Assembly: GCF_003722075.1 (NCBI RefSeq)
Contig: NZ_RDSK01000005.1
Span: 1-35,970, forward strand
DNA length: 35,970 nt
From: Methanohalophilus sp. RSK
Lineage (GTDB): Archaea; Halobacteriota; Methanosarcinia; Methanosarcinales; Methanosarcinaceae
Reading direction: 5' to 3'
In this document: positions 756-35,970 of the stretch, piece by piece
How the letters are laid out: each line of letters starts with the position of its first letter
Position numbering within the stretch: position 1 is the first letter of the stretch
Made by a program: the position numbers and the translations under genes
Notes under the pieces: generated by a model
Told to the model about the DNA's origin: nothing
Database searches by the model: none
The model's input: only the letters and a program-made list of their open reading frames with translations

Positions 756-842
756 CTGCTACAATAAAGACTGAACTGGGATATATTGTCTTCCTCCTTT
801 ACACATTTTTCCATTACCATTCAACTTTTCGAGCAGCAGTCT

Positions 843-864
843 CCTTCCGTAAGGTAGGGGAGGA
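843..864 (+). repeat. probable left-end hairpin of the TnpB element
   Basis: CCTT-CCGT-AAGG at 843-854 forms a small hairpin followed by a G-rich strand (TAGGGGAGG). A related string, CTTGTCGTAAGGGAGGGG, follows the tnpB stop codon in the same orientation. Direct-orientation hairpins at both ends are typical of IS200/IS605 elements. The exact cleavage site was not determined. Confidence 0.45.
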
Positions 865-923
865 ATGCGCCTGATATTTCACAAAAGTAATTTTTTATAA
901 TAAGTAAGTGAATATACTATTGT

Positions 924-2075
924 ATGTTTCTCACTAAAACAGTTATCTTGAAAATAGCAAATCCTGATGATGATTTAGTGGAAACTATGCAGAAATATTC
1001 AGATGGAAGGAATTATGCTTCTGAAATTGTTTTTGGCAATGGTAAACCGATATCTTCGATAAAATTGCAGCAGGAAGTTTACGCATATCTTCGTGAAACA
1101 TTAAAATTAAAATCCCAGATGAGTTGTAATATTCCAAGACAGGTTGCAGGGTGTTACAAAACATTGTATAAACTGAAAACGTCGAAATGGCAAAAGGTAC
1201 AATTTTCACCATCCTCAATGACCTTTTCTTACAAAAGGGATTTTACTGTTAGTGAAGATAAGGTCAAAATAACCACTATTAATGGAAGAAAATCTTATTC
1301 AATTTTGAATTATGATCATGCAAAACAGTATTTTGATGGTTCATGGAAATATTAGGCATCCCAAATTGTAAAACACAGGGATGGAGATTATTATTTCCAT
1401 CTGTGTGTGGAAAAAGAAATCCCTGATAAAGAATTGACAGATGCATCTACATTTATGGGAATTGATGTTGGTATGAACTATCTTGCTGTTGCTTCCACCA
1501 CTGACAGGAAATGTAGTTTTTTTGCTGGTGGTGAAATTAAGAATCTTCGCAACCAGCACAAGTCAATGCGAGCACGGTTACAATCGAAGGGAACTTCATC
1601 TGCAAAACGTATGTTGAAACATATTGCAGGTAAAGAGAAACGTCTTATGCGAGATGTAAACCACAAAATCTCAAAAGAAATTGTGAAGTTCGCAAGTGAA
1701 AGAGGTGTATCTGTAATAGGTCTGGAAGATTTAACGGGGATACGTGAATCCACACTTTCCAAAGTTTCCAAAAAGAAAAGACATAACCACAGTAGTTGGG
1801 CTTTCCGCCAATTACAAACATTTATTGAATACAAGGCAAGAGAAGCAGGCATAATTACACATTATGTTGATCCATCGTATACCTCTCAAACCTGTATTCG
1901 ATGCAATCATATCTCTAAGAATAACCGTAACAGATTGTCTTTTAGATGTGAAAAATGTGGTTATGAAAACAATGCCGACCTGATCGGTGCAATGAATATT
2001 GAACACAAAACACGGGATTACAGGTATATCCTGGAATCTCAGGGGTGCTTGTCAGCCACCCAGACGAATGCTTAA
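924..2075 (+). CDS. tnpB: TnpB-type RNA-guided nuclease (OrfB) with one in-frame TAG codon
   Basis: Two reading frames, 924-1352 and 1356-2075, are in the same phase and separated only by TAG at 1353-1355. Read through, they give a 383-residue TnpB of normal length. The RuvC catalytic residues are present: GIDVGMNYLA (Asp), GLEDLTGI (Glu) and NNADLIGAMN (Asp), together with a zinc ribbon CIRCNH...CEKCGYE near the C-terminus. TnpB proteins are nucleases guided by an RNA from the element's right end and help maintain the element. A TATA-like TTTATAAT at 893-900 suggests a nearly leaderless transcript. The nonsense codon sits between the N-terminal and RuvC parts (after Trp-Lys-Tyr). As no gene here ends in TAG, the codon is plausibly decoded as pyrrolysine; a simple amber mutation is the alternative. 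Confidence 0.85.
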
Positions 2076-2116
2076 TTGACATTCAAGTCTTGTCGTAAGG
2101 GAGGGGTAGTTGACAT
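2076..2116 (+). mobile_element. right end of the TnpB element, possible omega-RNA 3' end
   Basis: Directly after the tnpB stop lies CTTGTCGTAAGGGAGGGG followed by TAGTTGAC, resembling the conserved right ends of IS605/IS1341 elements, which often finish in TTGAC or TTCAC. In characterised TnpB systems this region is the scaffold of the guide RNA and the guide is the flanking genomic DNA. Here that flank would be the start of the tgtA promoter region. The boundary is approximate. Confidence 0.45.
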
Positions 2117-2151
2117 ACACATATATACTATCAGCGGTATCTATTGCTCCC

Positions 2152-3627
2152 ATGACCGCTGTATTCGAAATACTGCAAAAAGACGCAGCTGGCCGTATTG
2201 GTAGACTGCATACACCACATGGTGTTGTTGAAACACCAACGGTTATGCCAGTTATAAATCCCAACATAAACACGATCCCCTCTTCTGAAATGCATCAGTT
2301 TGGTGCACAAATACTTATTACAAATTCATATATCATTTCTCGCAAGGACGAACTCAGGAAAGTAGCACTGGAAAAAGGCCTGCATCATCTTCTGGATTTT
2401 GATGGTCCGATCATGACAGATTCAGGTTCCTTTCAGCTATCCGTTTATGGGGATGTTGAAGTAACAAATGAGCAGATCCTTGATTTCCAAAAAAACATTG
2501 GTTCGGATATTGCAGTCCCCCTTGACATTCCAACTCCTCCTGATGTCTCTTACAAAAGGGCAGAAGACGAACTTGAAACGACCCTTGAAAGAGTGATTGC
2601 AGCCAGGGAAATTGTAAGAGAAGGTATGCTTTTGGCGGGTCCTGTACAGGGCTCTACTCACCTGGATCTCAGGGCCCACAGTGCGAAAACCCTTTCAAAA
2701 CACGCCTTTGATGTATATCCTATCGGAGCTGTGGTCCCTCTAATGGAATCCTACCGTTATGCGGATCTGGTTGATGTTGTTATTTCTTCCAAAAAAGACC
2801 TTGATCCTGTAAAACCGGTCCATCTTTTTGGAGCCGGTCATCCAATGATGTTTGCTCTTGCTGTAGCAATGGGATGTGACTTATTTGATTCAGCAGCTTA
2901 TGCCCTTTATGCAAAAGCAGGGCGTTATATTACTGTTGCCGGAACATCTCATCTTAAAGATCTTCAGTATCTTCCATGTAATTGTCCGGTTTGCTCTTCT
3001 CATACTGCATCGGAAATAAAATCCGCTCCCAACTCCAAAGAATTACTGGCAAGACACAATCTGTACGTGACATTCGCAGAAATTCGTAACATCAAACAGG
3101 CAATAAGGGAAGGTAATTTGTTAGAGCTTGTGGAACAGCGGTGCAGGAGCCATCCCTCAATGCTGTCGGCCCTTAAAAGATTGTACAATTACAGTCCCTG
3201 GCTTGAAAGACTTGATCCGTTTTCCAAATCCACTTTCTTTTATACAGGACCCGAGTCCTCAAAAAGACCGGAAGTTACGCGATTTGAAGAAAGACTTGGC
3301 CGCTTTAACCTGAATGGTAAAATTCTCATACGCTCAAAATCTGTGAAAGGTGAAGCAACTTATGACCATGTCCTGAATTTCAAGGCTCCGTTTGGAGCAT
3401 ATCCCGTTGAACTCTCTGAAGTGTATCCTTTCAATGCGGAAATCCCTGACGAAATGGATCCGGCTGCAATAGGTGTGGCGCTGCAAAACGTAATAGAACT
3501 TATTAATAAAAATAGGAATGGATTATTCTATTTGAATCTCCCAAAACAGTATACTGCTCATCCCCTTTACGAAAATCTAAAGAAGTATGCCATTCCTATC
3601 GATGAAATGCCCAATGAAAATCTTTAA
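2152..3627 (+). CDS. tgtA: archaeal tRNA-guanine transglycosylase (preQ0 insertion, archaeosine pathway)
   Basis: The protein (491 residues) exchanges guanine-15 of tRNA for preQ0, the first tRNA-bound step to archaeosine. It starts FEILQKDAAGRIGRLHTPHGVVETPTVMPV, the family's usual N-terminus. The catalytic-site pattern IMTDSGSFQLS follows at about residue 80, and the zinc motif CNCPVC with its downstream ligands lies near 280. The C-terminal part, with few clear motifs, corresponds to the domain archaeal TGTs carry beyond the barrel. ATG at 2152 is preferred over the upstream in-frame TTG at 2110, because conserved sequence begins at the ATG and 2110 falls in the TnpB element's right end. 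A TATA-like ACATATATAC at 2118-2127 suggests a very short leader. Confidence 0.93.
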   Translation: MTAVFEILQKDAAGRIGRLHTPHGVVETPTVMPVINPNINTIPSSEMHQFGAQILITNSYIISRKDELRKVALEKGLHHLLDFDGPIMTDSGSFQLSVYGDVEVTNEQILDFQKNIGSDIAVPLDIPTPPDVSYKRAEDELETTLERVIAAREIVREGMLLAGPVQGSTHLDLRAHSAKTLSKHAFDVYPIGAVVPLMESYRYADLVDVVISSKKDLDPVKPVHLFGAGHPMMFALAVAMGCDLFDSAAYALYAKAGRYITVAGTSHLKDLQYLPCNCPVCSSHTASEIKSAPNSKELLARHNLYVTFAEIRNIKQAIREGNLLELVEQRCRSHPSMLSALKRLYNYSPWLERLDPFSKSTFFYTGPESSKRPEVTRFEERLGRFNLNGKILIRSKSVKGEATYDHVLNFKAPFGAYPVELSEVYPFNAEIPDEMDPAAIGVALQNVIELINKNRNGLFYLNLPKQYTAHPLYENLKKYAIPIDEMPNENL

Positions 3628-35800: not shown

Positions 35801-35970
35801 ATGAATTACACCCTCTATTGTTGTTACCATCTATGTGTTTCTGGATCGTTTCAGCAGATACTTGACCTTGTGTTCCTATGTAGTAACTTGGAGACCACAA
35901 ATGCTTTCCCCAAAATTCTTTATTTCGCAGTTCGGGGAATTTTTGAAATGCTCTTTTTGTAGTAACGCCT
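35790..35970 (-). CDS. tnpA: IS200-type Y1 transposase, 3' part cut by the window edge
   Basis: Reading leftward from the edge, the partial frame encodes about 59 residues: KRAFQKFPELRNKEFWGKHLW, then SPSYYIGTQGQVSAETIQKHIDG and a short tail to TGA. SYYIGT...VSAETIQKHI is the C-terminal segment with the catalytic Tyr of IS200/IS605 TnpA, which moves single-stranded DNA by a tyrosine-DNA link. The remainder, including the HUH motif, lies outside the window, so integrity cannot be judged. The TnpB element at 843-2116 could be moved by such an enzyme in trans. Confidence 0.88.
   Translation of the reverse strand, partial: GVTTKRAFQKFPELRNKEFWGKHLWSPSYYIGTQGQVSAETIQKHIDGNNNRGCNSSTV

What the first reader, a model, noticed from the sequence alone, without database searches (positions are those of the whole stretch)
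924..2075. TnpB nuclease with one amber codon and an intact active site
The only defect in a full-length tnpB is TAG at 1353-1355. The three RuvC acidic residues and the zinc ribbon are all kept. In a Pyl-decoding host the nuclease would be made only when UAG is suppressed, which would tie an RNA-guided nuclease and its transposon to pyrrolysine availability. Transposase genes with in-frame UAG have been noted in Methanosarcina genomes.
Basis: partly seen in the sequence, partly recalled or inferred. Interest (0 to 1): 0.68.

Follow-up and report, generated by a model that had tools for sequence, protein, structure and literature searches.

The report
Amber-mutated copy of ordinary TnpB
One copy of a common RNA-guided transposon nuclease in a salt-loving methane-making archaeon has acquired a single stop codon that its closest relatives lack; although this host can sometimes read that codon as the rare amino acid pyrrolysine, the pattern looks like an ordinary recent mutation, not an evolved switch.

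Summary
In detail: tnpB at 924-2075 has exactly one in-frame stop, TAG at codon 144 (1353-1355), with RuvC residues and zinc ribbon intact. The host decodes pyrrolysine: tRNA-Pyl(CTA), PylS, PylB, PylC and PylD are present, and both mtmB genes carry in-frame TAG. Size and contig number match Methanohalophilus sp. RSK. But the TAG is private. Codon 144 is sense in 18 of 18 distinct relatives where it is readable (16 Gln, 2 Gly; 9 of 9 within the genus Gln), so it is a one-step CAG-to-TAG change. Across Methanosarcinaceae, listed near-full-length tnpB frames with one stop split TAA 12, TAG 8, TGA 6, as single-base mutation alone predicts. The element (825-2114) is a 1,290-bp TnpB-only IS200/IS605-type insertion after TTCAA; five of five closely related genomes have the exact empty site. 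Its right-end hairpin is weak, though an intact relative's is nearly as weak. Best reading: a recent nonsense mutation in one copy, incidentally leaky because the host suppresses UAG. A selected pyrrolysine-dependent nuclease is not supported; leaky full-length protein remains possible and untested. At least two further copies in this genome are unassembled, so their codon 144 is unknown.

The parts
820..824 (+). TTCAA target motif kept at the left junction
   Evidence: Empty sites in 5 relatives read TTCAA|ATACAC; the window reads TTCAA|element|ATACAC
825..2114 (+). TnpB-only IS200/IS605-type element, 1290 bp, no target-site duplication, ends ...GTAGTTGAC
   Evidence: BLAST of the two flanks against 5 empty sites, junctions printed, ends conserved among copies
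924..2075 (+). tnpB reading frame, 383 codons + stop, one internal TAG
1353..1355 (+). in-frame amber codon, residue 144; Gln (CAG/CAA) in 16 and Gly in 2 of 18 readable relatives
1464..1979 (+). RuvC acidic residues D181 (1464-1466), E268 (1725-1727), D352 (1977-1979)
   Evidence: motif positions, invariant; their catalytic role is recalled from known TnpB
1893..1958 (+). zinc ribbon cysteines C324, C327, C342, C345
   Evidence: PF07282 match
2084..2106 (+). right-end hairpin region, shortened on its 5' arm relative to most copies
   Evidence: alignment; 40-42 base right ends predicted at -7.6 kcal/mol here against -8.2 to -22 in 7 other copies
2115..2151 (+). flank that would supply the guide of the element's RNA; lies directly upstream of the tgtA ATG at 2152
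   Evidence: junction; guide role inferred from known TnpB biology (recalled); TGT family

Best explanation
This is a recent nonsense mutation (Gln codon to TAG, one C-to-T step) in one copy of an ordinary TnpB-only IS200/IS605-type element that inserted upstream of tgtA in the lineage of Methanohalophilus sp. RSK. Shown: a single TAG, private to this copy; intact relatives elsewhere; precise insertion after TTCAA with empty sites in relatives; a full Pyl system in the host. Inferred: translation mostly stops at UAG, giving a 143-residue piece without RuvC; a minority of ribosomes insert pyrrolysine at a position that tolerates Gln and Gly, giving some full-length protein. The copy is therefore a leaky null rather than an evolved pyrrolysine switch; any dependence on pyrrolysine is a by-product of the host's code. 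Full-length TnpB of this type may still be supplied by other copies.
For: Codon 144 is sense in 18 of 18 distinct readable relatives: CAG 11, CAA 5, GGA/GGC 2. Among 17 other near-full-length close homologues in 111 Methanosarcinaceae genomes, 16 have no stop, 1 has TAA, none has TAG. TAG is 8 of 26 among singly interrupted near-full-length tnpB frames, against 0.25-0.36 expected from one-step mutation. Two other amber tnpBs compared with relatives carry TAG at unrelated codons, where relatives have Lys and Trp. Exact empty site in 5 of 5 closely related genomes. Pyl system complete. Published reporter in M. acetivorans: an introduced UAG mostly terminates, 20-30% full-length (PMC2933860, passage read).
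Against: No second lesion in the frame; private changes on this copy are not relaxed (5 nonsynonymous, 8 synonymous besides TAG; pairwise dN/dS 0.12-0.16 over the frame), as for a gene still in use or one mutated very recently. TAG is rare as a stop codon in this genome (5 of 173 ORFs, of which two look like read-through genes), so UAG may be decoded often. The other copies in the same genome could not be read at codon 144.
Confidence: 0.87

Rival explanations
1. Selected pyrrolysine-dependent TnpB: the amber codon is used and maintained, so that the nuclease is made only when Pyl-tRNA is charged.
For: Host has PylS, PylB, PylC, PylD, tRNA-Pyl; both mtmB copies use TAG; TAG is at most 5 of 173 stops; frame otherwise intact and constrained. 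[quoted passage not shown] PMC3639795, passages).
Against: 0 of 18 readable relatives share the TAG. No excess of TAG over TAA/TGA among interrupted tnpBs. Position 144 is variable, not an invariant site.
Confidence: 0.04
2. Sequencing or assembly error: the TAG is an artefact of a short-read assembly of a multi-copy element.
For: Short-read SPAdes assembly (PMC6491703 passage, if the genome is RSK); contig ends at C1, C4, C2 and C13 carry this element's ends, so at least two copies are collapsed or missing.
Against: This copy is assembled through with unique flanks on both sides and is only 79-95% identical to the visible ends of the other copies, so reads should separate; no frameshift or other error sign in the frame.
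Confidence: 0.05
3. Split gene: the amber ends an N-terminal protein and an internal start (for example GTG at 1407) makes a separate RuvC/zinc-ribbon piece with a regulatory role.
For: An ORF 1407-2075 of 222 aa exists; the C-terminal part alone scores 202 bits to guided_TnpB.
Against: The open C-terminal part is simply what a single nonsense mutation leaves; no readable relative is split at this codon; no start signal was demonstrated.
Confidence: 0.04

Closest known systems
TnpB-only IS200/IS605-type elements of Methanohalophilus and other Methanosarcinaceae (intact copies L048, L049, L050, L090, L095)
   Same: Same protein (87-93% identical in the genus), same left-end type, same ...GTTGAC right end, same junction motif type
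   Different: Sense codon at 144 and, in most copies folded, a stronger right-end hairpin
Methanosarcina acetivorans/mazei transposase family with conserved in-frame amber codon
   Same: Transposon gene with in-frame UAG in a Pyl-decoding methanogen (PMC2933860, passages read)
   Different: There the amber is described as conserved in each representative; here it is private to one copy. I did not compare the sequences; [quoted passage not shown]
Genuine Pyl genes mtmB/mtbB/mttB
   Same: In-frame TAG inside a long open frame in the same genome (mtmB; an mttB-family frame)
   Different: In those families the TAG is conserved (recalled, and PMC2933860 passages); here it is not
Solved TnpB and Cas12f-type nucleases (8j3r, 8dzj and others)
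   Same: Sequence match over the RuvC/zinc-ribbon half, E 3.8e-27 for the best
   Different: Best matched stretch begins only at residue 136; distant relatives

Membership tests
IS200/IS605 TnpB RNA-guided nuclease | TnpB profile over the curated cut-off | tested here: met
   NF040570 216.3 bits, cut-off 100, on the frame read through TAG
IS200/IS605 TnpB RNA-guided nuclease | RuvC D/E/D and zinc-ribbon cysteines | tested here: met
   D181, E268, D352, C324, C327, C342, C345 present and invariant in A1
IS200/IS605 TnpB RNA-guided nuclease | Insertion 3' of a short fixed motif without target duplication | tested here: met
   TTCAA|ATACAC empty in 5 of 5 closely related genomes
IS200/IS605 TnpB RNA-guided nuclease | Stable subterminal right-end hairpin | tested here: inconclusive
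   -7.6 kcal/mol here, -8.2 in an intact relative, -12.8 to -22 in 6 others (8 of 14 aligned right ends folded)
IS200/IS605 TnpB RNA-guided nuclease | tnpA (Y1 transposase) in the element (absent in TnpB-only derivatives) | tested here: not met
   None in 825-2114; 3 full-length and 2 contig-edge Y1 matches lie elsewhere in the genome, so it is filed as a TnpB-only derivative
IS200/IS605 TnpB RNA-guided nuclease | Guide RNA from the right end and RNA-guided cleavage | not testable with these tools
   Needs RNA sequencing and a cleavage assay
Pyrrolysine-encoding gene (UAG used as sense) | Pyl biosynthesis and charging machinery in the host | tested here: met
   tRNA-Pyl CTA, PylS, PylB, PylC, PylD
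Pyrrolysine-encoding gene (UAG used as sense) | In-frame TAG conserved at the same codon in homologues | tested here: not met
   0 of 18
Pyrrolysine-encoding gene (UAG used as sense) | TAG favoured over TAA/TGA among interrupted family members | tested here: not met
   8 of 26; binomial P of 8 or more = 0.32, 0.54, 0.74 for expected 0.25, 0.30, 0.35
Pyrrolysine-encoding gene (UAG used as sense) | Pyrrolysine present in the protein | not testable with these tools
   Needs mass spectrometry

The most novel reading that the evidence does not exclude
Although the amber arose by chance, this copy may be a natural pyrrolysine-conditional RNA-guided nuclease: full-length TnpB-Pyl144 is made only when Pyl-tRNA is charged, so that this element's self-retention at its site varies with the pyrrolysine (methylamine) state of the cell.
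Probability: 0.15. Interest if true: 0.45.

Novelty: new member of a known kind. Interest (0 to 1): 0.15.

Why it matters
As it stands, little: a nonsense mutation in one of several TnpB copies. It is still a useful caution that in Pyl-decoding archaea an in-frame amber in an otherwise intact gene is not evidence of recoding; homologue codons and the TAG/TAA/TGA balance must be checked. If the leaky product were active, the copy would be a ready-made native reporter of UAG suppression.

Tried and rejected
Rejected: conserved amber (0 of 18 readable relatives). Rejected: general enrichment of amber-interrupted tnpBs in this family of archaea. Limits of that count: the listings show only the best rows (about 150 per call), the copies are not independent, and only G000 was tested for the Pyl genes. 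Rows dropped before the count of 26: the index copy, frames with more than one stop, and three single-stop matches spanning under 330 of 389 profile positions (2 TAG, 1 TGA); with those three the split is TAA 12, TAG 10, TGA 7. Weak: the right-end hairpin as a second lesion, because the intact L048 copy is nearly as weak. Led nowhere: a viral-contig scan gave one relative at 35%; the phage collection had only matches under 60%; of plasmid records one is over 60%, Methanomethylovorans hollandica at 74.7%. In the held library one paper holds both 'pyrrolysine' and 'TnpB', once each, on bacterial vent-plume genomes (listing only); further searches were (listings only, except found passages of PMC2933860, PMC3639795, PMC6491703 and PMC8211752). 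No structure was predicted.

Full report
What is there. The frame 924-2075 is a 383-codon tnpB with one internal stop, TAG at codon 144. Read through, it matches guided_TnpB (NF040570, 216.3 bits, cut-off 100) and the two TnpB Pfam domains. The acidic residues D181, E268, D352 and the four zinc-ribbon cysteines are present and invariant among 16 aligned sequences. Their catalytic and structural roles are recalled from characterised TnpB proteins.

Where it lies. The window is the whole of contig C5 of an 18-contig, 1,969,036-base genome. A published table gives exactly that size and contig number for Methanohalophilus strain RSK, sequenced on MiSeq and assembled with SPAdes (PMC6491703, passages); the identification rests on that coincidence. 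The same paper states that pyrrolysine tRNA is present in the genomes of the genus.

The element. Flank comparison with the tgtA region of the genus shows that five of five genomes with more than 90% identity at tgtA (the other two are 70-72% and were not used) have the uninterrupted site TTCAA|ATACAC, where the window has TTCAA, 1,290 bases, then ATACAC. So the element is 825-2114, inserted without target duplication 37 bases upstream of the tgtA ATG at 2152. The five intact-frame Methanohalophilus copies aligned have the same kind of left end and the same right end ...GTAGTTGAC. There is no tnpA inside it; three full-length and two contig-edge Y1 transposase matches exist elsewhere in the genome, one of them near a related right end on C1. 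From known TnpB biology (recalled), the right end plus the bases from 2115 would form the guide RNA and direct cutting of empty copies of this site, favouring retention of the element.

Host pyrrolysine decoding. PylB, PylS, PylC, PylD and tRNA-Pyl with anticodon CTA lie together. Two mtmB genes each have one in-frame TAG. In the window plus eleven 20-kb samples, 5 of 173 non-overlapping ORFs of 200 aa or more end in TAG, 84 in TAA, 84 in TGA, while TAG makes up 4,044 of 22,488 stop triplets counted in all frames (binomial 9e-10). The ORFs are unreviewed calls; two of the five TAG cases continue into recognisable domains (an mttB-family gene and a histidine kinase). So this is a real Pyl-decoding host and UAG is a disfavoured terminator. 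In M. acetivorans a reporter with an introduced amber mostly terminated but gave 20-30% full-length product (PMC2933860, passage).

Is the TAG used? One search was given 29 loci, six of them second fetches of the same place; of 23 distinct places, 18 cover codon 144. None is TAG: 11 CAG, 5 CAA, 1 GGA, 1 GGC. Nine of these are Methanohalophilus copies and all nine are Gln (one of the nine is itself broken by other stops, three are cut by contig ends). In 111 Methanosarcinaceae genomes, the 17 other near-full-length homologues (67% identity or more) have no stop in 16 and a TAA in one. The amber is thus private and one transition from CAG.

Are amber tnpBs favoured in such hosts? Among the listed rows near-full-length tnpB frames (330 or more of 389 profile positions) have exactly one stop: 12 TAA, 8 TAG, 6 TGA (index copy left out). 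One-step mutation from eight intact tnpBs predicts 39-53% TAA, 25-36% TAG, 18-26% TGA. There is no excess of TAG. Two of the amber cases, compared with relatives, have TAG where relatives have Lys and Trp, at other positions.

Is the copy decayed? Besides TAG, this copy has 8 synonymous and 5 nonsynonymous private changes; pairwise dN/dS to five relatives is 0.12-0.16 over the frame, within the range of relatives among themselves. That fits either use or a very recent mutation. The right-end hairpin is predicted at -7.6 kcal/mol against -8.2 in the intact M. profundi copy L048 and -12.8 to -22 in six others (8 of 14 aligned right ends folded), so a second lesion is possible but not shown.

Other copies in the genome. 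Contig ends carry two left ends (C1 end, C4 start; 79% identical) and two right ends (C2 end, C13 start; 94-95%) of this element type. A short relic (86% over 71 bases) lies on C9.

Verdict. Ordinary nonsense mutation in one TnpB copy, in a host where it may leak.

Noticed in passing
genome contigs C1 end (L143), C4 start (L144), C2 end (L044), C13 start (L043): Contig ends share about 127 bases of this element's left or right end: at least two further copies are collapsed or dropped from the assembly.
   Followed up: partly
L162:8759-10393 (G000 contig C15): A PAS/histidine-kinase frame with an in-frame TAG at codon 254, inside its PAS domain match (195-294), open for 291 codons beyond: another amber-interrupted gene or a Pyl candidate; conservation in relatives not tested.
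   Followed up: partly
L152:2707-4194 (-) (G000 contig C12): An MttB-family frame (278 bits) with an in-frame TAG at codon 334, as expected for a Pyl gene.
   Followed up: partly
window 35829-35969 (-): A Y1 transposase fragment is cut by the end of the contig; a fragment over the same profile part lies at the start of C15, so another IS200-type element probably sits in an assembly gap.
   Followed up: no
window 2115-2152: The element sits 37 bases upstream of the tgtA ATG (TGT family), where five relatives have no insertion; it may have displaced the tgtA promoter.
   Followed up: no
L145 (G032), L146 (G027), L149 (G013): Other tnpB genes or fragments of Methanosarcinaceae with a single in-frame TAG, at unrelated codons.
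   Followed up: partly
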